Positions 384-31,028 of a DNA stretch of 32,384 bases are shown piece after piece; within the stretch, counting starts at the first letter, position 1, and every line of letters starts with the position of its first letter. The position numbers and the translations under genes were made by a program. The notes beneath the pieces are model-generated. The model saw nothing but the letters and a program-made list of their open reading frames with translations. It made no database searches and was not told the origin of the DNA. This DNA is from a virus. The stretch lies in the IMG/VR virus record IMGVR_UViG_3300033998_000063, positions 1-32,384 of that record; one strand, given 5' to 3'.

Positions 384-403
384 AAACCACCATATGTTAA
401 ACA

Positions 404-1210: not shown

Positions 1211-1213
1211 CTT

Positions 1214-3607: not shown

Positions 3608-3840
3608 TTGAATTTTTCACTCTTTTTAATTGGCGTTGTTCGCAAGTCGCCGTACCAAACAACATTTGGCGATTTAATCCATACAGTGCCATAGATACGT
3701 GGTATAGGATCCGAAGCATTAACAACAGGAACGTCGGAATCTTCGATGGTAGACGGCGGAGGAGCAGAAGGTTTGGGTCGTAGCAAAAACGCTAAATAAC
3801 TAAAAAGAAGCCCAAGTCCAAGTGCGAGCCAAATACTCAT
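3604..3840 (-). CDS. Tail tip assembly protein with N-terminal membrane-like segment (78 aa)
   Basis: Residues 3-20 are hydrophobic, then a proline-rich linker (PKPSAPPP) leads to IPRIYGTVWIKSPNVVWYGD and LRTTPIK. The 'IP..YGT..IK.PNVVWYGD..TTPIK' block is a familiar motif of siphophage tail tip proteins. It also occurs as the N-terminal part of longer J-type proteins, so this may be a split-off domain. It overlaps the next gene by four bases and sits 12 bases after the hub gene. Whether the hydrophobic start really enters a membrane or packs into the tail tip cannot be told from sequence. Confidence 0.7.
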   Translation of the reverse strand: MSIWLALGLGLLFSYLAFLLRPKPSAPPPSTIEDSDVPVVNASDPIPRIYGTVWIKSPNVVWYGDLRTTPIKKSEKFK

Positions 3841-3852
3841 TTCATCCCCTCC

Positions 3853-7267: not shown

Positions 7268-7283
7268 TAGCCTTCACTCCCAT

Positions 7284-11315: not shown

Positions 11316-11329
11316 GTTATATCACCTCG

Positions 11330-11749
11330 TTAAGGAGTAGTTACGGTCTCTACGGTCAATTCCCCATTACCCTGGAACGTGATAGACAGGCCGACGGCGT
11401 CTTCGGTCGCCACGCTCGTTGTAACGTTCGTTATAACCGCATTACCGCTCTTTTTTGGCTTCCCTACTTCGTCACCAAGGTCAAGAAAAGTCAAATGCAC
11501 GTCAAGTCCTGCGTTTACTCGAGTTTCAAGTTCAGCTTGTGCCGGATCTGTAGGATCATACCAACACTGCAATGTACCCGACCAACCTCGCTGCCCCCGC
11601 AAAAATTTCTTCCAGTCGGTGCTTATTGTAGAAACATCAATTGTTCCAGCATCGATACTTAATTCGTATGACCTTACCTCTCCAAATTGAGTTGGGGTGC
11701 CGTTAACGTCTATTTGTAGTATTGCCTTTTTACCCTCAAAAGCTGCCAT
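11330..11749 (-). CDS. Major tail tube protein
   Basis: The protein has 139 residues. The ATG at 11749 follows AGGAGATGAAGTAA. The sequence (FEGKKAILQIDVNGTPTQFG, EVRSYELSIDAGTIDVST, RGWSGTLQCWYDPTDPAQ) is the pattern of small tail tube subunits of the TP901/lambda-V type, a beta-sandwich that polymerises into the tail tube. Length is typical of the short form without an added Ig domain. Position between the tail completion protein and the chaperones is the usual one. Confidence 0.85.
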   Translation of the reverse strand: MAAFEGKKAILQIDVNGTPTQFGEVRSYELSIDAGTIDVSTISTDWKKFLRGQRGWSGTLQCWYDPTDPAQAELETRVNAGLDVHLTFLDLGDEVGKPKKSGNAVITNVTTSVATEDAVGLSITFQGNGELTVETVTTP

Positions 11750-11754
11750 TTACT

Positions 11755-12111
11755 TCATCTCCTTTCATATCCTCTAATTGTTAAAACTCCGTGAAACCAG
11801 CCCGACGGGTCACGCATGACCATTAATTCTTCAAAAAACCAGCTATCGTCGAGTGCTTTCACTACCAAGTCCGCAATTTCTAATACTTCTTTTTTGCCCT
11901 TGTAGCTACTCCAAATATGCACATCGACGGCCCATCGTCGCTCTGAAGCGTTCAAAAGTCGTCCTTCGAGGCTTTGCAACGTATCGATGACTATGTATGG
12001 TGACGGCTGGTCCTCTGGCGGGACGTCGAAAACACCTGTTACCTTACCCATGACGCCTGCGTTCGTAGACAAAGCGGTGTAAATATCCTGAATTATCGCC
12101 ACGTGGCTCAT
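11755..12111 (-). CDS. Tail completion / terminator protein, DUF3168 type
   Basis: The protein has 118 residues. An N-terminal helix (IQDIYTALSTNAGVMGKVTG) and strands (PYIVIDTLQSLEGRLLNASE, RRWAVDVHIWSSYKGKKEVL) match the DUF3168 pattern of phage tail terminators (lambda gpU / SPP1 gp17 class), which cap the finished tail and dock it to the head. It overlaps the gp10-like gene by one base and precedes the tube gene, as in HK97-like phages. Confidence 0.8.
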   Translation of the reverse strand: MSHVAIIQDIYTALSTNAGVMGKVTGVFDVPPEDQPSPYIVIDTLQSLEGRLLNASERRWAVDVHIWSSYKGKKEVLEIADLVVKALDDSWFFEELMVMRDPSGWFHGVLTIRGYERR

Positions 12112-12503
12112 TATTTCTCAACCTCTTTACTGATCAAGCGATACATTTCATCGCCCAACCGATCGGCTATTTCTTCTTCGTGGGCACGTGCAGCTGGATA
12201 GAAAAACGGTCTCGCTGGCATGTTTTTGGTACCAAATTCAATGAAATATGCGTAATATGTATCTACACCTCGTCGCTTCCCGCCCGCTGACATAGTAGCC
12301 GTTAGGTTCTTCTTTGAAACCGAGCGAGTAATGCCATCTCTTAGTGCGCCCGTGTCGACTGGCGCTCTACTCTTGGCATCCTCCACGGCTTCTTGGACTT
12401 CTTCACGTAAAACTTGGACAATTTTGTCCTTCGCTTGAGCGTTTACCCGCCTCAAAGCGTCTATATTTTCTTCGACACCCTTAACGCTCACTGAAAGTGG
12501 CAT
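12111..12503 (-). CDS. HK97 gp10-like head-tail joining protein
   Basis: The protein has 130 residues. The signature region is AKSRAPVDTGALRDGITRSV, then YYAYFIEFGTKNMPARPFFY, which is diagnostic for the HK97 gp10 family. Members sit between head-tail connector and tail completion genes and act in neck or tail assembly. The N-terminus is a long helix (VEENIDALRRVNAQAKDKIV). One base separates it from the stopper gene upstream. Confidence 0.88.
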   Translation of the reverse strand: MPLSVSVKGVEENIDALRRVNAQAKDKIVQVLREEVQEAVEDAKSRAPVDTGALRDGITRSVSKKNLTATMSAGGKRRGVDTYYAYFIEFGTKNMPARPFFYPAARAHEEEIADRLGDEMYRLISKEVEK

Positions 12504-12504
12504 A

Positions 12505-12825
12505 TTATTTCACCTCTGGTACGCAGTCGAGGTACATCCATCGTCTTCTTGCGTCGTGTCTCACCGCTTGAACTACCAACCTTTGACTTAAAAATTCCAC
12601 GATATCGCCCATTTTGGGGCCCAAAGAGTAGCGAATTAACACCTCATGCGACCTAATTTCCGTGTCTTTTTGCGCTATGACGCCACTCTTCGAACGTGGA
12701 GCTTCAACTCGAGCGAAAGCCGTCATGATCAAGGTTTCCTGCTCTTCCCAGCCACCCATGCCATCTTCGGTTCGCTCTTTTCGATATATTTTTATCTTAT
12801 CTCTGAGCTCCCCGATGCTCGTCAT
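12505..12825 (-). CDS. Head-tail stopper (SPP1 gp16 / adaptor family)
   Basis: The protein has 106 residues with the family pattern 'IGELRDKIKIYRKERTEDGM ... GGWEEQE', then VEAPRSKSGVIAQKDTEIRS and a closing beta-region (LSQRLVVQAVRHDARRRWMY). These small beta-barrels plug the connector below the gp6-like adaptor until the tail is attached. The gene overlaps its upstream neighbour by four bases. Confidence 0.85.
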   Translation of the reverse strand: MTSIGELRDKIKIYRKERTEDGMGGWEEQETLIMTAFARVEAPRSKSGVIAQKDTEIRSHEVLIRYSLGPKMGDIVEFLSQRLVVQAVRHDARRRWMYLDCVPEVK

Positions 12826-13367
12826 ATCGGAATTATCCTTTCTTGTAGAAGCAAAAGTTCTGCTGTGTATGGGATATCATTGGTGGGTTTGTCGGATATT
12901 ATCTCTCTATTCTCGTACCAGTGACCGATGAGGAGTAACATGGCTTGTTTAACTCGATGAGGAAGCGAGGCTGGGTCGTCTCCATATCCAGCTTTGTATG
13001 TTATCTTCATGTAACGAACGTCTCCGTCTGGAGGTGGCTTGTAAATATGGAGTCGACCAAGCGGATCTAACATGTATTCGTCTTGAGCAAGCGTATATTC
13101 CCCATCATCAGTTGCATATTTTACGCTCGTGATCTCCTGAATGGGCGGTCGTGGAAGTTGGACGGGGGATTGAGGCCATGCGTCGATAAAGTAGTCGATG
13201 GATCTCGTGATCCATGACCGCCCCTGGAACGTCTCACCCCACTCACGAGCGACTGGAATAAGGCTTTGTATGTAGTCGTCCTCATCATCGCTCGTCACTC
13301 TCAAGTGGGCTTTAGCTTCTTCAAGCGTGATCGGCTCCACACTGGGCGTCCCTATCTCCAAAAGCAT
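12822..13367 (-). CDS. Head-tail connector, gp6-like adaptor
   Basis: The ATG at 13367 is preferred (AAGGGGG seven bases before it) over a TTG at 13373, giving 181 residues. EPITLEEAKAHLRVTSDDED followed by DYIQSLIPVAREW is the helical start of HK97 gp6-like adaptors. The C-terminal helix (VKQAMLLLIGHWYENREII) is also typical. This protein forms the ring below the portal. It precedes the stopper gene as expected. Confidence 0.88.
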   Translation of the reverse strand: MLLEIGTPSVEPITLEEAKAHLRVTSDDEDDYIQSLIPVAREWGETFQGRSWITRSIDYFIDAWPQSPVQLPRPPIQEITSVKYATDDGEYTLAQDEYMLDPLGRLHIYKPPPDGDVRYMKITYKAGYGDDPASLPHRVKQAMLLLIGHWYENREIISDKPTNDIPYTAELLLLQERIIPI

Positions 13368-13383
13368 GACCAATCCCCCTTTC

Positions 13384-13620
13384 TCATCGTTTTTTGCCTC
13401 GTTTCGCCGGTCGAGGCATTATTTCTGTCTCTTCCGGCTCCATTGAAGTCGCTTCGATCTTTGTCGGCTCCTCTAGTTTTTCCGGCTCAAGGATCACGGC
13501 GGCTTGGCACGCTGCCAATATCTTGGCTTCTCGTTCGGTAACATCGTATATCTTACCGCTTAGCTTCACGCCTGACGGCCCCGCCGCCGTCTTGAGCATT
13601 TTTATCTTCATCGCTATCAC
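13384..13620 (-). CDS. Small head-region protein of unknown function (78 aa)
   Basis: The frame opens at a GTG that shares one base with the capsid stop (TAGTG); in-frame ATGs at 13611 and 13599 are alternatives, none with a clear ribosome binding site. The N-terminal half (KMLKTAAGPSGVKLSGKIYD, VTEREAKILAACQAAVIL) looks like a small compact domain. The C-terminus is charged (EPEKLEEPTKIEATSMEPEE, then a basic PRPAKRGKKR tail). Similar small proteins with a 'MLKTxAGPSG' start lie between capsid and connector genes in many phages. The role is not known. Confidence 0.6.
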   Translation of the reverse strand: MIAMKIKMLKTAAGPSGVKLSGKIYDVTEREAKILAACQAAVILEPEKLEEPTKIEATSMEPEETEIMPRPAKRGKKR

Positions 13621-14819
13621 TATGCAGCTATCTTAATACGTGCAAACGCCGACTCAAGCACTGGTGCTCCGTCTACCCACATGCGCCCAATGAAGCCAAC
13701 CTGGCTCGTTTGTGCAAAGAGCTCATTCAAACGTTGCAACTCCATACCCATTAGTTCGGCGATCCAGTAGTATCTAAAGTTGCCAATTATACCAACGTAG
13801 CTATTTACGGCAACAGTATTTGGCGCATATTCTGACTCATTCACGGGCAAATTCAGCAACGTATCGGGCTGACCAAGTGATATGCCGGGCCTCCACAGGT
13901 ATTGGTCGTCATTATCTTTTAGTTTGGCTATAAGCTTCACAACGTCCCTATGGAAGATCCACTGGGCGCCATTGCGATACTGCGCTTTCAATGCATATTT
14001 TGCATCGATCAAGCTGTCGGCGGTAATCCCGCCACCTGTGGACGAAACATCTCTTGCGGCGCTTATACCATCTGTGCTTACCGTGAACAAGCCCAACGGT
14101 TCGCCCGTACCCGAGCCAAGCAAAAACGCCTTTTCTTCCGTTATCGCAAACTTATACGCCAATCGCTGAGATACTAAGCTTTCTACGGGTATTGCTGAGG
14201 TACGCAAGAGCTTCATGCTAACCTTGACAAGCTTTGACAACTGGTTTGGCTTAAGCTCTCTTTTCCCGAAAGTCATTGTGCCTTCGGTGATGCTTTGTAC
14301 TTCAGCGGTCCAGTCTGCGTCATCAAGGTCTGTATCAAGCGTCGATGCGCCAAGCGAGTCCGAAGTATTTACTGGGATAACGGTGGCTAGTCGCCGTATA
14401 AACACCGCATCGTCTATTTCTTTTATCAGTTCAGCAACAAACTGCTGCGGTGGCAAAAGGTTTCCGCCTTGGGTGGCTGGGTCTACCTGCAGTGCCCTCA
14501 ATTCTGGCGATACAACACCCGTCTTAATGAAGGCACGGAACTCGGGCATTAAGTCTTTGCCACGGTCTTCTTTTTGCTCGGTTGGGATAGCTCGAACTGG
14601 CTCGTTAATGGGCATCGACATTTGAGCCTCAAAACGTTGTTTTTCTTCAAGACGCTTGGCCCTTTTTGCGAGCTCATCCATCTCGTCCATCATTTTGTCA
14701 TATTGAGACTGCTCCTCGGCATTAAAGTCACGCCCCTCAGCCTCGACACGATCAATTAGTTCCTTTGCCTTTTCCCATATATTCGCTCTTTTTTCGAGCA
14801 ATTCTTTTACTTCTGCCAT
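13620..14819 (-). CDS. Major capsid protein, HK97 fold
   Basis: The ATG at 14819 overlaps the protease TGA (TGATG) and lies seven bases after GGGAGG; an ATG one codon earlier is possible. The protein has 399 residues. The first 70 form a charged coiled coil (the delta domain, which acts as scaffold and is normally cut off). After a linker, LRALQVDPATQGGNLLPPQQ followed by FVAELIKEIDDAVFIRRLAT begins the shell domain, with LVKVSMKLLRTSAIPVESLV and EEKAFLLGSGTGEPLGLFT as family marks. The exact cleavage site is not evident. Confidence 0.92.
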   Translation of the reverse strand: MAEVKELLEKRANIWEKAKELIDRVEAEGRDFNAEEQSQYDKMMDEMDELAKRAKRLEEKQRFEAQMSMPINEPVRAIPTEQKEDRGKDLMPEFRAFIKTGVVSPELRALQVDPATQGGNLLPPQQFVAELIKEIDDAVFIRRLATVIPVNTSDSLGASTLDTDLDDADWTAEVQSITEGTMTFGKRELKPNQLSKLVKVSMKLLRTSAIPVESLVSQRLAYKFAITEEKAFLLGSGTGEPLGLFTVSTDGISAARDVSSTGGGITADSLIDAKYALKAQYRNGAQWIFHRDVVKLIAKLKDNDDQYLWRPGISLGQPDTLLNLPVNESEYAPNTVAVNSYVGIIGNFRYYWIAELMGMELQRLNELFAQTSQVGFIGRMWVDGAPVLESAFARIKIAA

Positions 14820-15787
14820 CATATTGCCTCCCTTTTTAATAGTAGTTCCGCCTTTCGGCGAAGCATTTTAAACCTTGCTTGTCTTAGTGAGTCCTCTTCC
14901 CATGGTGGCGTCCTGTCGAATTGCCGATAATGTCTGCTAAGGTGTGTGCGTACTTTGTCGATATCGGCGTTTGGTAGGTTGGCTTGAGGCAACCTTGCCG
15001 CCGCATTCGACACCGCTCGCCATACGACAGCCCCATCGCTTGGCCTATGGTGTGGGAATTTCAAGTCGCCGTATGCTTCAGGCGGCATAGATGCGGCCCA
15101 TGCAAAATGTCTGGCAATTCGCCTTTTCTCCGCATCGCTTAAGTCTTCCCACTGCTCATCCGTGAAGTCCTCTAAGTTGGGGGCTTCCCATGGTTCGGCT
15201 TCTGGTGCGAGCTTACTTGACACGTCACCAGGGTCTACCCCACGTTCCTCGAGCTTCCGAAAATGCTCTTCGAATACTTCTTTTGCGCTTCTTACACCAA
15301 CGGAAGTTGAAGGATACGCCGGGTAAGTCACGGGGGACACATCGTATAGCCTCGCGACCTTAATGATACGCCTTAGTGGCATATCTCTTGAGTCGTCCCA
15401 CTCCTCTTTGCCACCTTCCATCGAGAAGGAAAACGAGGACTGGTCGACTTCACCTCGCCGGATGAGCTCCACTAAGTCTCGCCCTGCTGTGGTCTTCATG
15501 TTCGGCGTGAACTCGTAGCGGAGGCCATAGTCGTCCTCCCATACTCGTAGGGTGTTATTCTTCGTTCGAGCTACGATCTGGCTTGGGTCATGGTTGAATA
15601 ATGCACGGATATCAGTTGCCTGAAGAGCATCACGAAATGCTCCAGGAAGTATTATCTCCTTGAAACCGTAGAGCTCCTCTGACAACTCATTGAACCTCGC
15701 AGCGTAGCCAGAGATAATTGGCGTGGCGTCGTCTTCTCGTAGCTCTAGTGCGGTGTTAATATATCTACGTTCGAGGTTTTTAGCCAT
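14819..15787 (-). CDS. Prohead protease with C-terminal extension
   Basis: The ATG at 15787 is preferred (AAGGAG nine bases before it) over ATGs at 15796 and 15793, giving 322 residues. In numbering from the 15796 start, residues 15-170 are an HK97-type (S78) serine protease: GYAARFN, PGAFRDAL, the His in LFNHDPSQIVAR (H69), the Ser in DQSSFSFSME (S120/S121) and YDVSPVTYPAYPSTSVGVRS. It should cut the capsid delta domain. Residues about 200-300 are an added domain (FTDEQWEDLSDAEKRRIARH, MPPEAYGDLKFPHHRPSDG, then a 'HLSRHYRQFDRTPPW' end), known as an accessory domain in some phage head proteins, of unclear role. Confidence 0.9.
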   Translation of the reverse strand: MAKNLERRYINTALELREDDATPIISGYAARFNELSEELYGFKEIILPGAFRDALQATDIRALFNHDPSQIVARTKNNTLRVWEDDYGLRYEFTPNMKTTAGRDLVELIRRGEVDQSSFSFSMEGGKEEWDDSRDMPLRRIIKVARLYDVSPVTYPAYPSTSVGVRSAKEVFEEHFRKLEERGVDPGDVSSKLAPEAEPWEAPNLEDFTDEQWEDLSDAEKRRIARHFAWAASMPPEAYGDLKFPHHRPSDGAVVWRAVSNAAARLPQANLPNADIDKVRTHLSRHYRQFDRTPPWEEDSLRQARFKMLRRKAELLLKREAI

Positions 15788-15807
15788 TTGCATCATCTCC
15801 TTTCTGT

Positions 15808-15816
15808 ATTATATCA
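15808..15816 (-). promoter_or_regulatory. Possible internal promoter (extended -10) before protease-capsid genes
   Basis: On the minus strand TGATATAAT is a perfect extended -10 element. TTGCAT 16 bases upstream is a poor -35. It overlaps the end of a 12-bp palindrome ATACAATTGTAT (15816-15827). The start of transcription would fall just before the protease ribosome binding site, leaving a very short leader. It could boost capsid production, but may be chance in an AT-rich gap. Confidence 0.35.
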
Positions 15817-15827
15817 TACAATTGTAT

Positions 15828-17036
15828 TCATGCAATAGATATCATGTTACCATTTACAAGATATTTATCTCCGCCCTCTTCTTCTGGTATCGGGTTCATG
15901 TTTTCTAACTCTCGTATGTCATTTGCCGAAAGCCAACCGTTGTTTCTGCCAGCTTGGTAGTATTGCGCCCTTGTCGCCATATCACCCCGAAGAAGCCCGT
16001 CGAGCAAAAACTCTGCATAATATTTTGACTTTTCGGCTGGGCGCAATATTTGTCGATGTATTGCCTGCTCCCAATTTACCACACGAGGTCGTATGCAGTC
16101 CTGAACAAATTCAATTGACTGATGTTCTATATTACTATATGTGCTCCTATCTAAAGACGCTATCTTGTGAGGCGGTACACCGAAGAATCGGGCAACCTCT
16201 TCTACTTGGTATTTTCTGGTTTCGATGAATTGAGCGTTATCCTGTGGTATCGTAGTTTGATGGAATTTTAGCCCTTCTTCTAGAAACATTATGCGATGTT
16301 TATTGCTTAACCCCTCATATTGCTTTCTGAACGAGTCCTCAAATCGCTTTTTGGCTTCTTCGGACAGCTTGCCAGGCATTTCGACAATGCCGGATGCCAC
16401 AGCTCCATTGCTGAAAAACTCTGCACCATAACCTTCGGCGGCTAAAGCCAATGCGGCTATTTCACGAGCATACTTCAGAGGCGGATAGCCCAAAAGACCG
16501 TCACCAAGCCCTTTTAAATGCAATATTTCATAGTCCAAAAGCGTACGAAACTCGCCGCCGGGCAAAGAAACGTCATAAACGAGCTTCTGGTTGCTTGAAT
16601 TTCGCCTAGGACGTACATTTACGGCCGGTATTGGCCACATTTCTATCACACGACCGGCGCTGTCTCGAACGATGTTAGCGTATGCGTTGCCGAAAAGCTC
16701 AAGTTGATATTGCATGAATTTGCGGAAGTCGAAGCTTGTCATTTCGGGGTTTGGCTCGTATTGAAGCACGTTATACAAATAGTGGTCACGTGCACGCTCT
16801 CTTCCCCGCTCTTTTCGTTCGTATACAGGAAACGGAAGAGAAGCGATCGTGTTTGATATTAAATTTATACAAGCATATACGGCCGAAACCTTCAGCATAT
16901 CGTCTTCGGTGATGTGCAAGCCCGACAAAGAAACACCACCGGTGAAAAAGTCGGTCAACCATGACGGTGGGTTGGCTATATTACCGGGCGATGCTCGTTT
17001 GCTTATTAGTTGCTTTATTCTTTGTACTATTCCCAA
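15828..17036 (-). CDS. Portal protein, HK97 family
   Basis: The protein has 402 residues. The start is TTG at 17036 after AAGGGGGTGTAGCG. Family signatures include MLKVSAVYACINLISNTIAS followed by LPFPVYERKERG, LFGNAYANIVRDSAGRVIEM and YEILHLKGLGDGLLGYPPLK, and RKYQVEEVARFFGVPPHKIA followed by SLDRSTYSNIE. It forms the dodecameric DNA gate at one capsid vertex. Order (TerL, portal, protease, capsid) is the canonical HK97 arrangement. Confidence 0.93.
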   Translation of the reverse strand: MGIVQRIKQLISKRASPGNIANPPSWLTDFFTGGVSLSGLHITEDDMLKVSAVYACINLISNTIASLPFPVYERKERGRERARDHYLYNVLQYEPNPEMTSFDFRKFMQYQLELFGNAYANIVRDSAGRVIEMWPIPAVNVRPRRNSSNQKLVYDVSLPGGEFRTLLDYEILHLKGLGDGLLGYPPLKYAREIAALALAAEGYGAEFFSNGAVASGIVEMPGKLSEEAKKRFEDSFRKQYEGLSNKHRIMFLEEGLKFHQTTIPQDNAQFIETRKYQVEEVARFFGVPPHKIASLDRSTYSNIEHQSIEFVQDCIRPRVVNWEQAIHRQILRPAEKSKYYAEFLLDGLLRGDMATRAQYYQAGRNNGWLSANDIRELENMNPIPEEEGGDKYLVNGNMISIA

Positions 17037-17048
17037 CGCTACACCCCC

Positions 17049-18593
17049 TTAAATTGCTATAACTCCTCTTGTTTCATATACTGAGACGCTGTGATCTTCT
17101 GTATTTTGCCACGCTGCGATGGCAATGATCAAGCTCACGATGGGGTCTATTCTCTCTGTGGCCTTATTTTTCATTGGCCGGATATTGTCATTTGGATCTG
17201 ATACCACCACAACATTATCCGCCGCCCAACGTAAGACGGGGTTACCTCCGTGACTTAGTTTGCCCTCCAATATGCGCCGTTCGAGCTCTTTACAAGCTGG
17301 CGATAGCGTCTGAAAGCCTTGCCGTATGGGTATAACTGCCATTCCGTCTTCCTGTTCGAGCTGAATTGCTAATTGTGTTGCGTTCCACGGATCATAACCT
17401 ATAACTTGAAGCCCCGGGTATTCGGCTTTGATGTCATTTATCTTCTTACGAATAAAGCCATAGTCGACCGCATTGCCGGGAGTAGCCGTGATCCACCCCT
17501 CACGCTCCCATTGCGAGAACGGAACACGGTCACGCCGTTTCCTTGCTATCATGTTTTCACGAGGGATCCATGACCAGTTAAAGACTGCCCCAGTTTCTGG
17601 ACAAAAAAGCGATGCACTTGTGATGTCCACAGTGCTTGATAAGTCTAGTCCTAAATAACATGGAGCACCCTCAGGTATTACTGGTTCACTGCTACAGGCA
17701 TCCCATTTATCCATATCAAGCCACCTGGTCTCCTGTGCCGTCCATTGGTTTAAATATAGGCGCCTGAAAGTGTTTTGATAGGCTGGAATTTCCAGTGCTC
17801 GTTTACATTCCTGCTGTAAAAATTGTGGTTGTATTGATACTCCATAATTCGGATTTGTCTTTTTCCATACTTCCTCATCGTTCCATGCATCTTCTTCATC
17901 AGCTTCGTAAATTAACTGAAAAAACGTAGGATCTTCTATAATACCATCTCTAACTTTGCGAGCGTAGTCCCAAATTTCCCAGCAAATAGAGTTCTTATTA
18001 TATCCAGCTGTCGTAATAGCAAGCATCATCGGCTGAGTGCGTGCGCCCATGCCAGAGGCCAATGTATCCCATAAGTCACGGTTAGGAGCACAGTGAAGCT
18101 CGTCATAAATTACAAAAGTAGGCGAATAGCCATGCTTTGAGTATGCTTCAGCTGAAATGGCATGATAAAAAGAGTTCTTTTCGTAATAAACTATTCTTTT
18201 TTGAGAATCAATGATCTTACAACGTGAGCTTAGTTCAGGCGACATCTTGATCATTTGGGCTGCCATATTAAAGACAAGGCTAGCTTGCTCCCTGTCCGCC
18301 GCTGCTGAATATACTTCTGCGCCATATTCGCCATCAGCAAAAAGTGCATATAGAGCTAATGCAGCTGCTAAAATAGACTTTCCGTTTTTTCTTGGTATGG
18401 CTATAAATGCGGTTCTGTATTGCCTTGTGCCGTCTGGGTTGACCGTCCCAAATAGTGGCCTAAGCAGCTTGTCTTTTTGCCATGGCTCTAACATAAAGCG
18501 TTGCCCAGCCCATTTACCCTTAACGTGATGCAGTGACTGGACAAATTTTACAATTCTATCGGCTTTTTGCTCATCAAACGGCACTAACAACAC
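17049..18593 (-). CDS. terL: Terminase large subunit
   Basis: The protein has 514 residues if started at GTG 18593, which abuts the TerS stop (TAGGTG); a GTG at 18584 is also possible. The ATPase domain has a Walker A-like IPRKNGKS (66-73), Walker B FVIYDELH (acidic D164, E165) and a coupling motif ITTAG (193-197). The nuclease domain has the first acidic residue in LGLDLSS (D317) and a late IDPIVSLIIAIA. This is the Terminase_1 / HK97-type packaging motor that cuts concatemers and pumps DNA. Length is normal and no key residue is missing. Confidence 0.95.
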   Translation of the reverse strand: MLLVPFDEQKADRIVKFVQSLHHVKGKWAGQRFMLEPWQKDKLLRPLFGTVNPDGTRQYRTAFIAIPRKNGKSILAAALALYALFADGEYGAEVYSAAADREQASLVFNMAAQMIKMSPELSSRCKIIDSQKRIVYYEKNSFYHAISAEAYSKHGYSPTFVIYDELHCAPNRDLWDTLASGMGARTQPMMLAITTAGYNKNSICWEIWDYARKVRDGIIEDPTFFQLIYEADEEDAWNDEEVWKKTNPNYGVSIQPQFLQQECKRALEIPAYQNTFRRLYLNQWTAQETRWLDMDKWDACSSEPVIPEGAPCYLGLDLSSTVDITSASLFCPETGAVFNWSWIPRENMIARKRRDRVPFSQWEREGWITATPGNAVDYGFIRKKINDIKAEYPGLQVIGYDPWNATQLAIQLEQEDGMAVIPIRQGFQTLSPACKELERRILEGKLSHGGNPVLRWAADNVVVVSDPNDNIRPMKNKATERIDPIVSLIIAIAAWQNTEDHSVSVYETRGVIAI

Positions 18594-19067
18594 CTACCCA
18601 TCTAACAATTCTTCAAGCTCAGTTTTTTTAGACTGTGGCTTAACACTCAGCTTACTACGAGACGAAGGAGTAAGTCCGAATTCTGAAGCAAAAGCTCGTA
18701 CGTGTTTTAGTGCATTACTAGCTATAGCCACGTGTGGCGCTTGTTGTTTATATTTTATAGATCCGTCCTCGTTATACAATACTAGTATATCGCCGTTTTC
18801 CTTCAAATATTCAACAGCCCTACGCCACTGAGCAAAAGACTCACAATAACCAGCCAAAGCAACCATATCTATATAAGTCAAAACACCAATTCTATGAAGT
18901 TCAGGTGCTATTCTGTGCCATTCTTCTTTGGCTTCATCGGTTAACCAGTTTGGGCATTCGGGGCATTCGCTGTTAGGTTGTGGTTCTGAATCATTTAAAG
19001 GTCGTTTGCCGGGATTTCCTTCTAAAATTTTTATGGCTGTTGGTTTAGGCTTCCTGCCTTTGCCCAT
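18594..19067 (-). CDS. terS: Terminase small subunit, P27 family
   Basis: The ATG at 19067 is preferred because GAGGGTGGGG precedes it; a GTG at 19076 would add three residues. The product has 157 residues. PTAIKILEGNPGKRPLNDSE followed by PQP, the WLTDEAKEEWHRIAPELHRI block and VLTYIDMVALAGYCESFAQW are diagnostic of the P27 family. It binds the packaging start site and recruits the large subunit. The C-terminus is basic and Ser-rich, with a short acidic end (TELEELLDG). It abuts the TerL start. Confidence 0.92.
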   Translation of the reverse strand: MGKGRKPKPTAIKILEGNPGKRPLNDSEPQPNSECPECPNWLTDEAKEEWHRIAPELHRIGVLTYIDMVALAGYCESFAQWRRAVEYLKENGDILVLYNEDGSIKYKQQAPHVAIASNALKHVRAFASEFGLTPSSRSKLSVKPQSKKTELEELLDG

Positions 19068-19076
19068 TGACCCCAC

Positions 19077-19155
19077 CCTCTTTAATTATGCGAAATGTTG
19101 CGCGAAGGCCCGCGCCGTTGTTCGGAGGCACAAGCTGTAGAGATTTGTACCCCCC
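19077..19155. other. Candidate cos / packaging start region
   Basis: This 79-bp gap between the HNH nuclease and TerS genes has a GC-rich core, GCGCGAAGGCCCGCGC (19100-19115), with inverted arms GCGCG/CGCGC around AAGGCC, set in AT-rich flanks. A run of seven or more C (19148-19155) lies near the HNH stop. HNH nucleases next to terminases are known to be needed for cos cutting in HK97-like phages, and cos commonly lies by the small terminase gene. Placement is inferred; no cut position can be stated. Confidence 0.45.
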
Positions 19156-19455
19156 CTACCCACCACCATGCTTCTTATTGTGACAAGCAATGCATAAGCT
19201 TTGCAAATTATCCCATTCCCACATATTCCCGCCATCATTCACGGCTATAATATGGTCTACCAAGTCTGCCGGCGTTATTATACCATTGCGTTCGCATTCC
19301 TCACATAGTGGGTGTTGCTTTCTATATAGCATCGATATTTGCTTCCATTGACTTGAATAGTATAACCTGTCACGCTTAGGTCTGCTTTTATTATATATTT
19401 TGTTTGTCTGCCTTATTTTTCGTTTTATGAATTGCTCGCCTGGTTTTCGTGGCAT
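19156..19455 (-). CDS. HNH endonuclease, terminase-associated
   Basis: The protein has 99 residues. Zinc ligands are in CEEC (C51, C54) and CIACHNKKH (C88, C91); the ββα-metal core is LVDHIIAVNDGGNMWEWDNL (H68 and N83), ending in the conserved HNKKH. The N-terminus is strongly basic. This is the HK97 gp74-like group, which works with the terminase in DNA cleavage at cos. The ATG at 19455 has no strong ribosome binding site and lies nine bases after the stop of a small upstream ORF, suggesting translational coupling. Confidence 0.9.
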   Translation of the reverse strand: MPRKPGEQFIKRKIRQTNKIYNKSRPKRDRLYYSSQWKQISMLYRKQHPLCEECERNGIITPADLVDHIIAVNDGGNMWEWDNLQSLCIACHNKKHGGG

Positions 19456-19744: not shown

Positions 19745-19787
19745 TTTATAAACATAAAATTAGACCCCGCAGTGGCGATGCGGGGCC
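19745..19787 (-). terminator. Leftward hairpin terminator ahead of the late promoter
   Basis: CCCCGCA (19765-19771) pairs with TGCGGGG (19779-19785) around a seven-base loop. On the minus strand it is followed by TCTAATTTTATGTTTAT, a broken T-rich tail. It would stop leftward transcripts arriving from the control region just before the late promoter. Confidence 0.5.
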
Positions 19788-20059
19788 TTGTTGCGAGATT
19801 GCTCTATATACCAACCCGAAAGGAGGAGATTGGTGTAATTGTATTATGCCACATTGGGGGGAGGGTTGTCAATAGGGTCGAATGGCCTGGGGAGTTGAAA
19901 ATTGAGGGGAGGGTGGAGGTGTGGGAGATTACACCCAAAAATACCCCCAAAAAAGGGCCCGAAGTGGGAGATAAGCCACAAGTCAATTGGCCTACGCTAG
20001 TTTACTGCTACTAGCACCCCTCTTCAGTGTATATACTATAGGGGCAAAAAACGCGATAA

Positions 20060-20371
20060 ACACTTTCGTTACGTAGACCCCTTGTGAAAGTGTGGTATAA
20101 AGTGAGGACGGGTGAGTGAGGGGTGAGGACACTTTAACAGACGTGGTGTTACTATATATAGACTGGGATCTCGGGGGTGAGTACATGAGTGAGGCAAAAA
20201 AAAATGGGCCGAAGCCCTTTTTCCACTTTTTATGTGTACTCAGCCTAGACCCCCATAACCATGCGGGTTAATCGAACTTTTCACGTGTACTCACATGTGT
20301 ACTCACCTCACTCACCTCTGAAACTCCAGTTTATTTTTATCGAAATTCGGTTCAAATTCGTAACACTTTCG
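20060..20371. repeat. ACACTTTCG repeat family
   Basis: ACACTTTCG occurs at 20060-20068 and 20363-20371. GAAAGTGT, its inverse, lies at 20086-20093, making an inverted pair with the first copy 17 bases apart. ACACTTT occurs again at 20129-20135. The first copy is followed, and the last preceded, by GTTACG or CGTA, extending the likeness. Such spaced inverted copies look like a binding site for a dimeric DNA-binding protein. Confidence 0.6.
20196..20222. terminator. Bidirectional intrinsic terminator at centre of control region
   Basis: Nine A, then GGGC (20206-20209), loop CGAA, GCCC (20214-20217) and five T. The A and T tracts on either side let it work in both directions. The purine-rich arms on each side point toward it. 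Confidence 0.7.
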
Positions 20372-20389
20372 CCATTTTAGTTCATTTTT

Positions 20390-20411
20390 GGGGCCTTTAG
20401 CCCCACTTTTT
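20390..20411 (+). terminator. Possible rightward hairpin terminator
   Basis: GGGGC (20390-20394) pairs with GCCCC (20400-20404) around a five-base loop, then ACTTTTTC. The stem is short and the T-run starts two bases after it, so strength is uncertain. Confidence 0.4.
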
Positions 20412-20523
20412 CAATTTCTCCCACCCAAATGTGGTGAATTATACCTGTACTCACCCCCTTTGGCCTACTCCCTTCGACCCACTTCTCCCCCTACCTAATT
20501 CAAAGTACATACTGCTTTGCTCC

Positions 20524-20552
20524 ATCCTACCACATTTTCATCTTCTTGTCAA
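20524..20552 (-). promoter_or_regulatory. Leftward promoter-like element 1 in control region
   Basis: On the minus strand TTGACA (20552-20547), 17 bases, then TAGGAT (20529-20524; 4 of 6). The AATGTGG of a partial repeat lies inside the spacer. Transcription would run toward the central terminator with no gene in between, implying a short non-coding RNA or a priming transcript if it is real. Confidence 0.4.
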
Positions 20553-20636
20553 GTCCCTCACCTTTACATGCCCCCTATGTGGGCTTGTCCTTCCCGTGCT
20601 TCCCCTATCTTCCTAACGATATACTACCTCTCCTAC

Positions 20637-20665
20637 ACTCTACCCCTTTTCTCAACTTCCGTCAA
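20637..20665 (-). promoter_or_regulatory. Leftward promoter-like element 2 in control region
   Basis: On the minus strand TTGACG (20665-20660), 17 bases, then TAGAGT (20642-20637; 4 of 6). It lies just downstream of a full CCACATTTGGGGGG copy (20684-20671), which would sit at a usual activator position. Same direction as element 1. Confidence 0.35.
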
Positions 20666-20941
20666 GCAGCCCCCCCAAATGTGGACTCCTCAACCCGCTT
20701 TACACCTCCCCCAAAACACCCTCTCAGCCGCCCCAGAACGCCCCATCTTTCCTTCCAAGGCATAAAACACTACCCCCACCCCTTCAAATTCAATCTACGC
20801 CATCCTAGCCTCACATTCCCCCCAATGTGGTACTCCAGGCCTATTTTTTTATCTTGTTCATCCCAAATACTTAGGTCTACAGCCCCACAACACCCCAAAA
20901 CCCCAGCATTAGCAAGGCTTCTTTCAATTACAACCTCCCTC

Positions 20942-20969
20942 TTGACATTCAGTCCAAAGGGCCTATAAT
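20942..20969 (+). promoter_or_regulatory. Consensus rightward early promoter
   Basis: TTGACA (20942-20947) and TATAAT (20964-20969) are both perfect sigma-70 hexamers with a 16-base spacer. Transcription would start near 20976, 26 bases before the first early ATG, which has GAAGGAGGAG ahead of it. Small inverted arms GCCT/AGGC (20961-20974) enclose the -10 and could be an operator. Confidence 0.88.
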
Positions 20970-21001
20970 AAGGCTACAATACCTAGAAGGAGGAGAGCAA
21001 G

Positions 21002-21604
21002 ATGGCAAAGAAAAGAACAAAGAGATTCTACGTGAGATTCTACGTGGAAGAAAGGGCAGTAAGAATAACAAACAAAAACGACATTGCCGCCATAAATTTT
21101 GCAGCACTCGCCACAGCTACCCCTACCTTTGACGATCGCTCTTGGGAGTACCTTTGCGTACGAGATCGTTATGTGGTAGGTACCGACACTCACAGGATAC
21201 ACCGAGCCTTCTTAGAAAGTACCATTGAAAACGGGCTTTACGCTCTTGTCAAAAGCACAAAGAAAGAAATTATCATCGAACGTATCAAAGATGATGAGGG
21301 GTACCCTTCACAAAGCGCCATCGACAAATATATGCAAGCCAATGGTCGCAAGGTAGAAGTCAAAGAAAAAATACTTAAATTCCTACCAGCCATCCTGGTC
21401 TATCTTGTGGGCGGCAGCGGGCAAGCAATCAAGCCAGAATATCTCATCGATGTATGCAAGTTTTTACCCTCAGCTAATGTTATTGTTACATTACCATCCG
21501 ACCCCAGCTATGGGGTACATATACTACATACAAGCGAAAACATGGAAGCTTTCATTATGCCCATCGTCTTAAACTCTAGCAAAATAGTAGAAAGAAAATA
21601 TTAA
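21002..21604 (+). CDS. First early gene; possible DnaN-like sliding clamp domain protein (200 aa)
   Basis: Start is well set by GGAGGAGAGCAAG before the ATG. Two parts recall bacterial sliding clamps. WEYLCVRDRYVVGTDTHRIH (about 48-67) is like the 'l.gv...l.atDghRl' strands, followed by a 'GLYAL...DEGYPS' stretch as in clamp domains. IKPEYLIDVCKFLPSANVIV (about 145-164), then HTSENMEAFIMPIVL, is like the last clamp half ('..p.yLld.lk.l......YLiMP.rl'). The length fits one domain, or parts of two, rather than three, so a ring would need more subunits. The N-terminus is basic (KKRTKRFYVRFYVEER). Similarity is from memory of motifs only; it may be another early protein. Confidence 0.45.
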   Translation: MAKKRTKRFYVRFYVEERAVRITNKNDIAAINFAALATATPTFDDRSWEYLCVRDRYVVGTDTHRIHRAFLESTIENGLYALVKSTKKEIIIERIKDDEGYPSQSAIDKYMQANGRKVEVKEKILKFLPAILVYLVGGSGQAIKPEYLIDVCKFLPSANVIVTLPSDPSYGVHILHTSENMEAFIMPIVLNSSKIVERKY

Positions 21605-26683: not shown

Positions 26684-28387
26684 GTGCTTGACTATATACC
26701 AATCACGTCAAAAACAAAGAACCTATGGTCATATATCTGGACACTGAAAGATAAAAAGTCTTTCTGGTTTCTGTTGAATGAATTTAGCCTTGGCAAGGCA
26801 AAGGAATACATAGAAAAACATAAAGATGAAACTGATATGTACATTGCCGTGTCGTTATTCAAGGAGGGCGGCGACAGAGTTACGAGGGGCAAAGCCGCTG
26901 ACTCGATAGGACTGTACGGTCTTTGGCTTGACATTGACGTTCAATGTTTACATCGTTCAAGGGCTGATCTACCACGTACTACAGCCGATGCAACAAAGAT
27001 CCTTGCTGATGGCCCTAAGCCGTCGCTTGTTATAAATTCTGGCTATGGCCTCCAAGCTTGGTGGTTATTTACTGAGCCGTTCATTTTTGATAGTCCTGAA
27101 GATAGATTATCTGCCTCAAAGTTAGCTGGGGCGTGGAATGAATGGTACAGGCTGAAGGCTTTGCATTTTGGCTGGGGGCTAGACAGCGTCAGCGACCTTG
27201 CTAGGATCATGAGGATTCCTGGTACCTTTAATCACAAGGGTGAATTCCCTGTCCCCGTAGAAATCATAGAAGATACTAAGTGCTTATATACTGTTGCAGA
27301 ACTAACAGACATGATACCACAGGAAGCATGGGATGCCAGGCGTGGTACGAGCGATCCTTCAATATCCGTAAACATAGTGATTAATCCTGATGCTGACTAC
27401 CCGCCACAATTTTCATCTATGTGTGCCAATATAGAAAATTTCGCTGTTACCTGGACGCATAAAAAGCCAATCAAAGACAGGTCAAACAGCGGTTACGACC
27501 TAGCTATAGCATCCTACGCAGCTATGGCTAACCTGTCAGATCAAGAGATATGCGACCTCTTGATATGCCACGCCAAAGAGCAGGGCTTTCCTATTAAACG
27601 GCTTGAATATTACCAGAGAACTATAGCCAAAGCACGTGAGGGCGGTCAGCTAGGGTTAGCTCCTGAAGAAACACACGACGTATCTTCTATTATCCCTAAG
27701 TTGAAAGACTTGAATGCCAGCGGCCAAGATACTGTATACGCTGAGAGAAAGTCAGTGTTTGCTCTTTTGTCGATACTCTTTGGTCTACAGATATATGACT
27801 TCATAGCATATAAAACAGACCCACGTGAGTATGAGCTTTTCACTGAGAATGGCAAGGTATTCTTTCACAAAGGGCAAGAAGACTTGGCCACATCTAACGC
27901 TTTTAGGAAAAGGGTGGGTGACATAACAAAGGTATACCCACCCCGTTACAAAACAGAGGACTGGGACGTTATTTTGCAGGCACTGAGGTTTGCCGCCCGT
28001 GACGTTGACATAGGTCAAGAATTGTCAGAGGAATCGCAGACCAAGATGTGGGTGGAAAGTTATTTGGCTAGCCACCCCCCATTACCTGAAGACAACATAG
28101 AGGAGGCTGTAATAGCTAGAAAGCCGTTTTATAGGAATGACAGTGTTTGTTTTTACATTGATGAACTTAGGTCATGGTTAATGTCACGGGGGGAAAGAAT
28201 TCCCTTGCAAAAGCTAGGTGCAAGACTACAAAGAATAGGCATTAAAAACACAAAGATAAACTATAGAACTCATATTGGCACAAGGGCACAAACGAGAGTG
28301 TTTGAAATGCCAGCGGAAGATATAAAAATAGAGGCGGAAGGAGGCGAAGAAGATGGAGACTACGAAGACTACGAAGACTACGAATGA
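26684..28387 (+). CDS. AEP-superfamily (PrimPol-like) primase
   Basis: The protein has 567 residues. Start is GTG at 26684, seven bases after GGGAGG; the nearby ATG at 26682 is out of frame. The catalytic core shows the three AEP motifs: LWLDIDV (D83, D85), NSGYGLQAWW (118-127) and DSVSDLARIMRIPGTFNHK (167-185). A helical domain follows (SGYDLAIASYAAMANLSDQE with ICDLL), like the PriCT module. The C-terminal part ends in a winged-helix-like segment (VCFYIDELRSWLMSRGERIP) and an acidic tail (EDGDYEDYEDYE). It makes primers and may also extend them. No helicase domain is fused, unlike many phage primases. Confidence 0.8.
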   Translation: MLDYIPITSKTKNLWSYIWTLKDKKSFWFLLNEFSLGKAKEYIEKHKDETDMYIAVSLFKEGGDRVTRGKAADSIGLYGLWLDIDVQCLHRSRADLPRTTADATKILADGPKPSLVINSGYGLQAWWLFTEPFIFDSPEDRLSASKLAGAWNEWYRLKALHFGWGLDSVSDLARIMRIPGTFNHKGEFPVPVEIIEDTKCLYTVAELTDMIPQEAWDARRGTSDPSISVNIVINPDADYPPQFSSMCANIENFAVTWTHKKPIKDRSNSGYDLAIASYAAMANLSDQEICDLLICHAKEQGFPIKRLEYYQRTIAKAREGGQLGLAPEETHDVSSIIPKLKDLNASGQDTVYAERKSVFALLSILFGLQIYDFIAYKTDPREYELFTENGKVFFHKGQEDLATSNAFRKRVGDITKVYPPRYKTEDWDVILQALRFAARDVDIGQELSEESQTKMWVESYLASHPPLPEDNIEEAVIARKPFYRNDSVCFYIDELRSWLMSRGERIPLQKLGARLQRIGIKNTKINYRTHIGTRAQTRVFEMPAEDIKIEAEGGEEDGDYEDYEDYE

Positions 28388-30023: not shown

Positions 30024-30346
30024 AGAAAATACAGGAATGGTTTAAAGCTAAGGGTGGTGTTTGTCATAAAGTGCATGGTGGGCCTATGTCGGCAGGATTC
30101 CCCGACATTATAGGGTGTATAAAGGGGCGTACGTGGGTGGTTGAGGTTAAAGTACCAGGTGCAAAACCTAGAGTACCCAAGGTTAAACGCAATGAAGTAC
30201 CACAAGAGATGCAAGAATGGTTAGCAATGGGGGCCACAATGCTTCAAGCTAAGACGCTGTATGATTGGCAGAAAGCTGGAGCCATAGTATTAGTGGCTAC
30301 CAGCATAGAAGATATGGAACAAAAATTTAAGGAGGGACAAATATGA
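30002..30346 (+). CDS. VRR-NUC family nuclease
   Basis: The start is GTG at 30002 with TGGAGGGGTTAAC before it; an in-frame ATG at 29951 lies within the helicase gene and lacks a site. The product has 114 residues. GFPDIIGCIKGRTWVVEVKV is the PD-(D/E)xK core in VRR-NUC form (G-x-PD ... E-x-K). The N-terminal helix and following GGVCHKVHGG are typical. Phage members are stand-alone structure-specific nucleases, thought to cut branched DNA. It overlaps both neighbours, so it is coupled to the helicase. Confidence 0.9.
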   Translation: MSEKLIVKKIQEWFKAKGGVCHKVHGGPMSAGFPDIIGCIKGRTWVVEVKVPGAKPRVPKVKRNEVPQEMQEWLAMGATMLQAKTLYDWQKAGAIVLVATSIEDMEQKFKEGQI

Positions 30347-30567
30347 TAAATTTGAAGAAAGATTTAACTGAGAAAGAATGGACGATAATTAAACTAAAGG
30401 CGCAGGGCAAGACAGCTAAGGAGATAGGTGAAATCTTGGATCGAAGCCCTAAAACAATTAAGAATAGACTACTTACTATCTACAAAAAACTTGAGGTAAG
30501 CGGAACTATTGAAATGCTCAAGAAACTTCATGATGAATATGGAGTAGATGTGTGGGACTTGGAGTGA
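30343..30567 (+). CDS. LuxR-type helix-turn-helix protein (74 aa)
   Basis: ATG overlaps the nuclease stop (ATGA) and has AAGGAGGGACAAAT before it. DLTEKEWTIIKLKAQGKTAK followed by EIGEILDRSPKTIKNRLLTI is a complete GerE/LuxR-type DNA-binding domain, with no receiver or ligand-binding domain. The last 20 residues are an acidic helix. A stand-alone HTH near the end of the early operon is a candidate for late-gene activation or early repression. Confidence 0.8.
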   Translation: MINLKKDLTEKEWTIIKLKAQGKTAKEIGEILDRSPKTIKNRLLTIYKKLEVSGTIEMLKKLHDEYGVDVWDLE

Positions 30568-30572
30568 GGTAA

Positions 30573-31028
30573 ATGTCCAAGTATGTTAAAAAACATACAA
30601 GGAGCAAAAATTGGACGCAGGAAGAATATGACACAGTCTTACAAATGGACTTAGAAGGATATACACAGCAGGAGATAGCTGATCATATTGGTCGTACAAA
30701 GTCATCTGTTAAATCTAAGATGTACACACTCCAGTATAGGATGGACAAGGCAGCAATAACAAAGGATCATAGATTTGAACAAGGTGCTGTGTATTTAATT
30801 AGAGAAAACGAGACTCCACAATGTGTAGTATTCTTACCTAATAAGTTTATATATGAGGGCAAGATGCAAGGCAGAAAGGAGAAACATATATTTAGAAGTA
30901 TTAATGGTGAGTACTTACTCACATTTACTGATGCTCAGTTTGGTGGGTACAGGTTTGAAAAGGAGGGGGAGGACTATGCCGAAAGGATACGAGAAAATGC
31001 GGAACGCAATAAAGGAGGATCTGATTAA
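30573..31028 (+). CDS. Myb/SANT-like HTH protein (151 aa)
   Basis: The N-terminus is basic (MSKYVKKHTRSKNWTQEEYD), then TQQEIADHIGRTKSSVKSKM completes a three-helix Myb/SANT-like DNA-binding domain within residues 10-60. The C-terminal part is strand-rich (CVVFLPNKFIYEGKM, HIFRSINGEYLLTFTDAQFG) and ends in a charged helix. As a second HTH gene beside the LuxR-type one it is probably a transcription regulator. The 43-residue gene begins inside its 3' end. Confidence 0.7.
   Translation: MSKYVKKHTRSKNWTQEEYDTVLQMDLEGYTQQEIADHIGRTKSSVKSKMYTLQYRMDKAAITKDHRFEQGAVYLIRENETPQCVVFLPNKFIYEGKMQGRKEKHIFRSINGEYLLTFTDAQFGGYRFEKEGEDYAERIRENAERNKGGSD

What the first reader, a model, noticed from the sequence alone, without database searches (positions are those of the whole stretch)
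20173..20458. TGTACTCA array bounded by a 13-bp inverted repeat
Five copies of an eight-base motif within 280 bp, two of them one helical turn apart, and the outermost copies extended to a perfect 13-bp inverted pair around the terminator. This looks like a binding array for a phage-encoded DNA-binding protein, for which the LuxR-type and Myb-like proteins at 30.3-31.0 kb are candidates.
Basis: partly seen in the sequence, partly recalled or inferred. Interest (0 to 1): 0.55.

Follow-up and report, generated by a model that had tools for sequence, protein, structure and literature searches.

The report
Phage inverted repeat array, likely origin
Just upstream of its replication genes this uncultivated phage carries two mirror-image clusters of a short DNA motif; close relatives keep the layout, more distant ones rebuild it with a different motif, and the best guess is a protein-bound start site for copying the phage DNA.

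Summary
The array is real and larger than reported. All five TGTACTCA copies lie in 276 bp; 0 of 300 shuffles of the region gave any 8-mer so clustered. With degenerate copies it is two inverted clusters: six GTGAG left of a centre near 20210, five CTCAC right (20102-20454). The "13-bp bounding pair" is not the boundary and is not conserved.

Two relatives (G001, G002) keep the array. Two more distant ones (G004, G005), with homologous replication and HTH genes, lack the TGTACTCA cluster but have a like layout built from GTGACACC; the common core is GTGA. The array goes with the early/replication module, not with the packaging genes. In G005 it overlaps a gene's 3' end and no promoter-like site was found within it. 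In the diverged right arm, sites are conserved above their flanks.

Best reading: a replication origin bound by a phage protein (0.47). Candidates: the Myb-like HTH protein, whose recognition helix changed with the motif (3 of 8 residues kept), and the prim-pol C-terminus; the LuxR-like protein fits less well. Main rival: a regulatory operator array (0.3), helped by a conserved leftward promoter-like site beside the array. No binding or replication was tested; the covariation rests on two motif states.

The parts
20102..20131 (+). Left outer cluster: phased degenerate copies GTGAGGACG, GTGAGTGAG, GTGAGGACA (GTGAG at 20102, 20112, 20116, 20123)
   Evidence: near-identical in G001 and G002
20173..20194 (+). 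Left inner copy GGGGGTGAGTACA plus ATGAGTGAGG
   Evidence: kept in G001 and G002
20195..20234 (.). Centre of symmetry: A-run, GGGCCGAAGCCC, T-run
   Evidence: outward AAAA maximum at 20209; the hairpin stem is not kept in the relatives
20235..20243 (-). Right inner copy, TGTACTCAG on + (motif on - strand)
20286..20316 (-). Right outer cluster: TGTACTCAC, TGTACTCAC (12 bp apart), CTCACTCACC
   Evidence: G001/G002 have TGTACTCAC, TGTCCTCAC, CTCACTCACC
20446..20458 (-). Far right copy TGTACTCACCCCC; degenerate (CTCACTCACCCC) in the relatives
20524..20552 (-). Leftward promoter-like site TTGACA-17-TAGGAT reading toward the array
   Evidence: 10 of 12; matching site in L005 at 2934-2906, 11 of 12; consensus match only
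20942..20969 (+). Consensus sigma-70-type early promoter TTGACA-16-TATAAT, downstream of the array
   Evidence: 12 of 12; same in L005
26684..28387 (+). AEP-type primase-polymerase, candidate user or binder of the array
   Evidence: phrog_2478 E 6e-22; 28% identity over 241 aa to a mycobacteriophage primase/helicase
30343..30567 (+). LuxR/GerE-type HTH protein, 74 aa
   Evidence: PF00196; GerE/LiaR/VraR-like model
30573..31028 (+). Myb-like/sigma-r4-like HTH protein, 151 aa; candidate array binder

Best explanation
The 20.10-20.46 kb segment is the phage's replication origin, or the recognition part of it. It is two clusters of short sites, phased at about 10-12 bp and mirror-imaged about a centre near 20210, upstream of the replication module. 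A phage-encoded protein of the early module (the Myb-like HTH protein at 30573-31028 or the C-terminus of the prim-pol at 26684-28387) binds the sites side by side, opens the duplex and lets the phage primase start. Shown: the sites, their inverted layout, their conservation, their turnover to another motif in relatives with a like layout, and their inheritance with the early module. Inferred: which protein binds, and that the act is replication initiation.
For: Clustering and perfect orientation segregation in the window: 0 of 300 shuffles each. A like design recurs with another motif: G004/G005 have GTGAC x5 left and GTCAC x5 right in about 215 bp (one further GTGAC/GTCAC pair lies 120-150 bp to the right, out of this order). 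In the diverged right arm, site positions are kept at 34 of 39 against 91 of 162 for the rest, p 2e-4. The array goes with the early module and not the virion module: G000 and G001/G002 share it, yet 8 of 8 packaging/structural queries from G000 find nothing in G001-G005, while G001/G002 share 14 kb of late genes with G005 at 77-78% and have a different motif. It lies about 0.5-2.1 kb upstream of the first early protein's homologue in the five records. In G005 it overlaps the 3' end of a leftward ORF after a rightward gene, and the only promoter-like site found in L064 2640-3700 lies over 90 bp to its right, reading toward it. Replication proteins are present: prim-pol, SNF2- and UvrD-type helicases. 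Origins with two iteron sets are known from PICIs (PMC6092414, passages).
Against: The centre is not AT-rich (0.55 against 0.56 for the window; core 0.63), unlike PICI origins. No DnaA-box-like TTWTNCACA lies in the region. No known initiator family was recognised among the proteins scanned. GC skew cannot help because gene direction changes nearby. The covariation rests on two motif states only, and other early proteins diverge as much or more between the groups (first early protein 39-64%, p21815 34-38%, p22937 37-39%). In G000-type phages a conserved leftward promoter-like site reads toward the array, which suits a regulatory role.
Confidence: 0.47

Rival explanations
1. Operator, roadblock or silencer/enhancer array: the Myb-like (or LuxR-like) regulator binds the inverted clusters, possibly looping the DNA, and controls transcription through or beside the array (leftward RNA from about 20.52 kb, the early unit, or in G000 the late unit).
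For: In G000 the array lies between divergent late (-) and early (+) units. A leftward promoter-like site sits about 60-70 bp right of the far right copy in G000 (20552-20524, 10 of 12) and at the matching place in L005 (2934-2906, 11 of 12). Candidates look like transcription regulators (PHROG 'sigma factor', 'transcriptional regulator'). Repressors and sites drifting together is known for phage stoperators (PMC6550527, passages). By eye an extended -10-like TGTGGTATAAAG precedes the left cluster, though the scan did not report a promoter there. A matrix hit at the LuxR/Myb gene junction (30562) recurs in G001 and G002, but it overlaps ribosome-binding-site-like sequence.
Against: In G001, G002, G004 and G005 rightward ORFs lie to the left of the array, so it does not face the late unit directly. 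In G005 it overlaps a gene's 3' end. The consensus early promoter is about 490 bp away.
Confidence: 0.3
2. The selected thing is a long hairpin (RNA, or single-stranded DNA as in the pRN1 stem-loop origin), the repeats being its stem.
For: Fold z-scores as DNA -4.2 (window), -8.6 (L005), -6.2 (L064); a neighbouring control stretch -0.9; as RNA -2.8, -7.9, -5.7. Two different motifs both give a long palindrome. pRN1's putative origin is a ~100-nt stem-loop (PMC4234260, passages).
Against: Of 92 pairs in L005 the window keeps 76, breaks 15, has 1 gap, and shows no compensatory change; lost pairs fall outside sites (14 of 61) more than inside (2 of 31). An inverted array folds well whatever its role. 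No Rfam family reaches its cut-off.
Confidence: 0.11
3. Centromere-like partition site of an extrachromosomal prophage.
For: Clusters of short phased repeats; no integrase-family match in 6 of 6 records (G003 among them duplicates G001).
Against: No partition gene was recognised among the proteins searched, but not all proteins of all records were scanned.
Confidence: 0.05
4. attP arm-type sites or packaging (pac/cos) sites.
For: Phased sites in two arms around a centre; terS is about 1 kb away in G000.
Against: PF00589 and PF00239: 0 of 6 records (controls ring in 14 and 10 of 14 genomes). The array does not follow the terminase module.
Confidence: 0.03

Closest known systems
PICI/SaPI replication origin (PMC6092414, passages)
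   Same: Two sets of short iterons beside or in a replication module. (That the sets are oppositely oriented in SaPIs is recalled, not from a call.)
   Different: No AT-rich region between the sets here; no PICI Rep initiator recognised; array is at the head of the module, not 3' of rep; it is in a whole phage.
pRN1 and phage BIP-1 stem-loop origin with AEP replication protein (PMC4234260, passages)
   Same: AEP-type prim-pol encoded; large inverted repeat in noncoding DNA; layout kept despite sequence change between the two groups.
   Different: Here the repeat is an array of short sites; the prim-pol has no recognised helicase domain; no compensatory pairing seen; not located 3' of the primase gene.
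NrS-1 PrimPol primer initiation at 5'-GTGA-3' (PMC8718748, passages)
   Same: GTGA is the core shared by both array motifs.
   Different: NrS-1 belongs to another AEP family (PrimPol proper; PMC5862659, passages); recognition there was shown on single-stranded templates; not tested here.
Cluster A mycobacteriophage operators/stoperators (PMC6550527, passages)
   Same: Short sites whose sequence drifts with the phage DNA-binding protein.
   Different: Those are scattered over the genome, mostly in one orientation with transcription; these form one local inverted array.

Membership tests
PICI/SaPI-type origin | Two sets of iterons | tested here: met
   Six GTGAG left and five CTCAC right in the window; 6 and 6 in G001 and G002; 5 and 5 in G004 and G005 plus one outlying pair
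PICI/SaPI-type origin | AT-rich region between the sets | tested here: not met
   AT 0.55 between the outer clusters against 0.56 for the window; L064 0.53 against 0.55
PICI/SaPI-type origin | Cognate Rep initiator gene immediately 5' of the origin | tested here: not met
   Gene order; no Rep family match among proteins scanned
Iteron-type replication origin (general) | Repeats bound by a cognate initiator; supports replication | not testable with these tools
   needs binding and replication assays
pRN1-type stem-loop origin | Stem-loop conserved in structure despite sequence change | tested here: inconclusive
   Strong folds in both groups; within one group 0 compensatory pairs and 15 of 92 broken between L005 and window, only three sequences
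AEP primase-polymerase (for 26684-28387) | Motifs I (hhhDhD), II (sxH, or Q in some families) and III | tested here: inconclusive
   LWLDIDV, GYGLQ and GLD read by eye; region aligned with a mycobacteriophage primase; phrog_2478; no Pfam or NCBIfam match and no meaningful PDB match
LuxR/GerE HTH (30343-30567) | GerE domain over its cut-off | tested here: met
   PF00196 43.5 bits, cut-off 23.5; Foldseek TM 0.73-0.78 to VraR, LiaR, GerE, though no E at or below 0.001
Phage attP | Integrase gene in the element | tested here: not met
   0 of 6 records for PF00589 and PF00239; records may be incomplete
pac/cos site | Goes with the terminase genes | tested here: not met

The most novel reading that the evidence does not exclude
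The array is a bidirectional origin whose sites are themselves the primer start signals of the phage's own AEP primase-polymerase. The core common to both motif versions is 5'-GTGA-3', a sequence that NrS-1 PrimPol uses to start primers just 5' of it. In the five records GTGA lies on the + strand left of the centre and on the - strand right of it, so primers would be extended outward on both sides and give two diverging leading strands. The flanking bases would then be free to change with the DNA-binding partner. Against: five stretches of distant prim-pol phages showed no such GTGA array, and NrS-1 is of another AEP family.
Probability: 0.12. Interest if true: 0.75.

Novelty: new variant of a known kind. 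Interest (0 to 1): 0.5.

Why it matters
If it is the origin, these phages give a clean natural experiment: one layout, two recognition codes, with a small HTH protein whose recognition helix changed too. That would make specificity switching of a phage initiator directly testable, and would show a PICI-like two-sided iteron layout in a whole phage with an AEP-type primase. If it is an operator array it is still a tractable example of a DNA-binding protein and its sites changing together.

Tried and rejected
attP: no match to two integrase/resolvase families in 6 of 6 records. pac/cos: array does not follow the terminase. CI operators for the G004/G005 type: the CI-like HTH there (PF13560) sits among TGTATACA palindromes, a different motif; that these are its operators is inference. 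Known RNA: no Rfam match at its cut-off. Structural RNA: no compensatory change. Transposon ends: the 13-bp pair is not conserved. Homology of the two array types by alignment: local score 30 for window against L064, not above 200 shuffles (mean 26.8, maximum 39); 31 for L005 against L064, no shuffles run. GTGA array as a general mark of prim-pol phages: 0 of 5 stretches (Strobilo, LKO4, BetterKatz, FP1, TPA4; 26-40 kb each, not whole genomes) and 0 of 4 other phage stretches (L163, L164, L065, L074). DNA search: no match in phages (6 kb query) or plasmids (321-base query). Exact pattern of the close pair in IMG/VR: none (it asks for 3 bases between TGTACTCAC and TGTGTACTCAC, where the window has 1, so it tested little). 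Relatives in genome contigs: none by two queries. IMG/VR: the first early protein, p25891, Myb-like and prim-pol queries found the records G001, G002, G004, G005, the G001 duplicate G003, and one weak 29-residue match; the SNF2 query kept 80 loci, four of them these records and 76 below 40% identity. Of 173 loci held at the end, those with 3 or more TGTMCTCA in 300 bp all come from G000, G001 or G002 (13 loci). Paper searches: (listings); TGTACTCAC gave 123 papers, 15 listed, none of these 15 about a phage binding site by title and abstract start (papers not opened).

Full report
What was given. A reader saw five TGTACTCA copies at 20173-20458, the outer ones extended to a 13-bp inverted pair, and proposed a binding array for two phage HTH proteins.

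The window. It is the whole of a virus record, G000, 32,384 bases; whether the record is complete is not stated. Virion genes run leftward from about 19.46 kb (HNH, TerS with PF05119, TerL). A replication module runs rightward from 21.0 to 31.1 kb: an unassigned protein, an SNF2-type helicase, a prim-pol (phrog_2478), a UvrD-type helicase, an endonuclease-like protein (phrog_93), a LuxR-type HTH and a Myb-like HTH. Spanin- and weakly holin-like genes lie at the right end. Between 19456 and 21001 lies about 1.5 kb without convincing genes. The best-listed terminase relatives, at 46-48%, are phages of Clostridia and Streptococcus (20 of 2,495 records listed), so the host is probably a Firmicute; this is inference.

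Five TGTACTCA are found where stated and nowhere else in the window; 1.03 are expected and 1 of 100 shuffles reaches five. Since the motif was picked after the fact, I asked how often any 8-mer clusters so: 0 of 300 shuffles of the noncoding stretch and 0 of 40 shuffles of the window reached five in 290 bp. The array is larger than reported. In 20001-20500 the pentamer GTGAG occurs at 20102, 20112, 20116, 20123, 20177 and 20189, and its complement CTCAC at 20290, 20302, 20307, 20311 and 20450: six on the left, five on the right, perfectly segregated. No pentamer did this at 5 and 5 in 300 shuffles. With a matrix made from the sites themselves, 12 of 16 hits of at least 9 bits in the window lie in the array. 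The layout is: a phased outer cluster, a gap of about 54 bp, an inner copy, a centre with an A-run and a T-run, an inner copy, a gap of about 51 bp, a phased outer cluster, and one far right copy.

Relatives. A scan with the first early protein gave two close relatives, G001 (39,953 bp) and G002 (41,297 bp). Window bases 20020-20259 are 82-100% identical to both in 40-base steps; to the right the window diverges. In 20262-20460 site positions match G001 at 34 of 39 and other positions at 91 of 162 (Fisher p 2e-4). I drew the site borders after seeing the alignment, which favours this result. Scans with the SNF2 and p25891 proteins gave two more distant records, G004 (25,127 bp) and G005 (42,252 bp); their proteins from SNF2 onward are 50-89% identical to the window's, those upstream 34-64% where a match was found. 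They have no GTGAGKACA and TGTACTCA only once, alone, in G005. They have an array of like layout with GTGACACC: 6 of 7 copies in G004 and 6 of 9 in G005 lie in about 345 bp. GTGAC stands five times left and GTCAC five times right of a centre within about 215 bp; one more GTGAC and GTCAC follow 120-150 bp to the right, out of this order. The most clustered 8-mer in both 17-kb loci is GGTGTCAC, five copies. A fifth record, G003, is 100% identical to part of G001 and was dropped as a duplicate. The sample is thus five records but only two motif states.

What the array travels with. Of ten late and lysis queries from G000, only the two lysis proteins match in G001-G005; TerS, TerL, HNH, portal-region and tail-region proteins do not (8 of 8 without a match at 1e-3). 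G001/G002 share 14 kb of late DNA with G005 at 77-78% identity. So G000 has G001's array with another virion module, and G005 has G001's virion module with another array. This speaks against packaging sites. Integrase and resolvase families were found in 0 of 6 records, which speaks against attP, with the caution that records may be incomplete.

Which protein. Both HTH proteins are 96-99% identical within the first group. Between groups the two HTH proteins and a small ORF overlapping the Myb-like gene are at 50-59%, their neighbours from SNF2 onward at 70-89%. This is not unique: the early proteins left of SNF2 diverge as much. In the AlphaFold model the Myb-like helix 3 spans residues 43-50 (local pLDDT about 86, whole model only 65.5); 3 of its 8 residues are kept, against 20 of 29 in the rest of the HTH. 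In the LuxR-like protein 10 of 14 recognition-helix residues are kept. The prim-pol keeps 229 of 240 residues in its middle, 154-156 of 210 in its N-terminal part and 32-37 of 65 near the C-terminus; that last region could bind DNA, but no family matched there. The Myb-like protein and the prim-pol C-terminus are therefore the candidates. Structure searches gave no match at E 0.001 for either HTH model; the best for the LuxR-like one are GerE, LiaR and VraR domains at TM 0.73-0.78.

Hairpin or sites. Single strands of the array fold far better than shuffles (as DNA z -4.2, -8.6 and -6.2 for window, L005 and L064; a neighbouring stretch -0.9). But an inverted array must do so. Between L005 and the window 69 of 92 pairs are unchanged, 7 changed on one side, 0 on both sides, 15 broken and 1 gapped; site-to-site pairs are kept at 29 of 31 and other pairs at 47 of 61. 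This favours sites over pairing, with only three sequences.

Function. In G005 the array lies at 28.56-28.78 kb, after a rightward ORF ending at 28,241 and overlapping the 3' end of a leftward 184-aa ORF without family match. A promoter scan of L064 2640-3700 found one weak site, 9 of 12, right of the array (fewer than in shuffles, mean 2.2). In G000 the array is about 490 bp from the consensus early promoter at 20942-20969. This is a poor place for an operator and a usual one for an origin near replication genes. Against this, in G000 and L005 a leftward promoter-like site (10 and 11 of 12) stands about 60-70 bp right of the far right copy and reads toward the array, so a regulated leftward transcript through the array is possible. 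[quoted passage not shown] here two sets are present but the region between them is not AT-rich. I put the origin at 0.47 and an operator array at 0.3.

The bolder reading. A blind scan of 240 tetramers for outward arrangement placed GTGA second or third by listed order in 5 of 5 records (ties are common; AAAA, GTAT, GGGG or TTTT scored as high or higher; the last 1,297 bases of G002 were left out), with its maximum at the array each time. Shuffles of G000 and of a 20-kb part of G005 never reached the score (0 of 100 each). Direct counts are 6 and 5, 6 and 4, 6 and 4, 5 and 6 outward with 0 inward in G000, G001, G002 and G005, and 5 and 6 in G004. GTGA is the core shared by the two motifs. NrS-1 PrimPol starts primers just 5' of GTGA (PMC8718748, passages), so the observed orientation would send primers outward on both sides. 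Against it, five stretches of distant prim-pol phages show no such array, and NrS-1 belongs to another AEP family than the motif-II-glutamine type seen here (PMC5862659, passages; motifs read by eye).

Limits. No binding, replication or transcription was tested. Host and lifestyle are unknown. The motif and recognition-helix change is a single contrast.

Noticed in passing
window 19843-19872 and 20524-20552: AATGTGG stands directly before the -10 of two leftward promoter-like sites (TTGACA..AATGTGG-CATAAT and TTGACA..AATGTGG-TAGGAT); further AATGTGG at 20428, 20678, 20824 and one at 16635.
   Followed up: partly
window 19762-19788: A leftward terminator-like hairpin lies between a leftward promoter-like site and the HNH/terS genes, as in antitermination-controlled late promoters.
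   Followed up: no
window 20300-20960: A long noncoding stretch is C-rich and G-poor on the + strand (GC skew -0.348 in the 20001-21000 step); the aligned stretches of the close relatives look alike; unexplained.
   Followed up: no
window 1-19455: The virion module is unrelated to that of G001/G002 although the replication proteins from SNF2 onward are mostly 93-98% identical to G001's: a whole-module swap.
   Followed up: partly
window 111-340: TAGATGCA five times within about 230 bp at the left end of the record.
   Followed up: no
L064 2931, 3334, 4254, 4266; L063 2187, 2590, 3493, 3505: Palindrome TGTATACA flanks the array and the CI-like HTH gene in the distant relatives, perhaps that repressor's operators.
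   Followed up: partly
window 21002-21604: First early protein has a sliding-clamp-like stretch (VVGTDTHRIHRA, resemblance recalled) but no Pfam, PHROG or NCBIfam match.
   Followed up: partly
window 26684-28387: Prim-pol with glutamine in place of the usual motif-II histidine, as described for the PrimPol-PV1 supergroup (PMC5862659 passages).
   Followed up: partly
window 30562-30572: A site-like GAGTGAGGTAA at the LuxR/Myb gene junction recurs in G001 (15011) and G002 (14323); may only be a ribosome-binding site.
   Followed up: no
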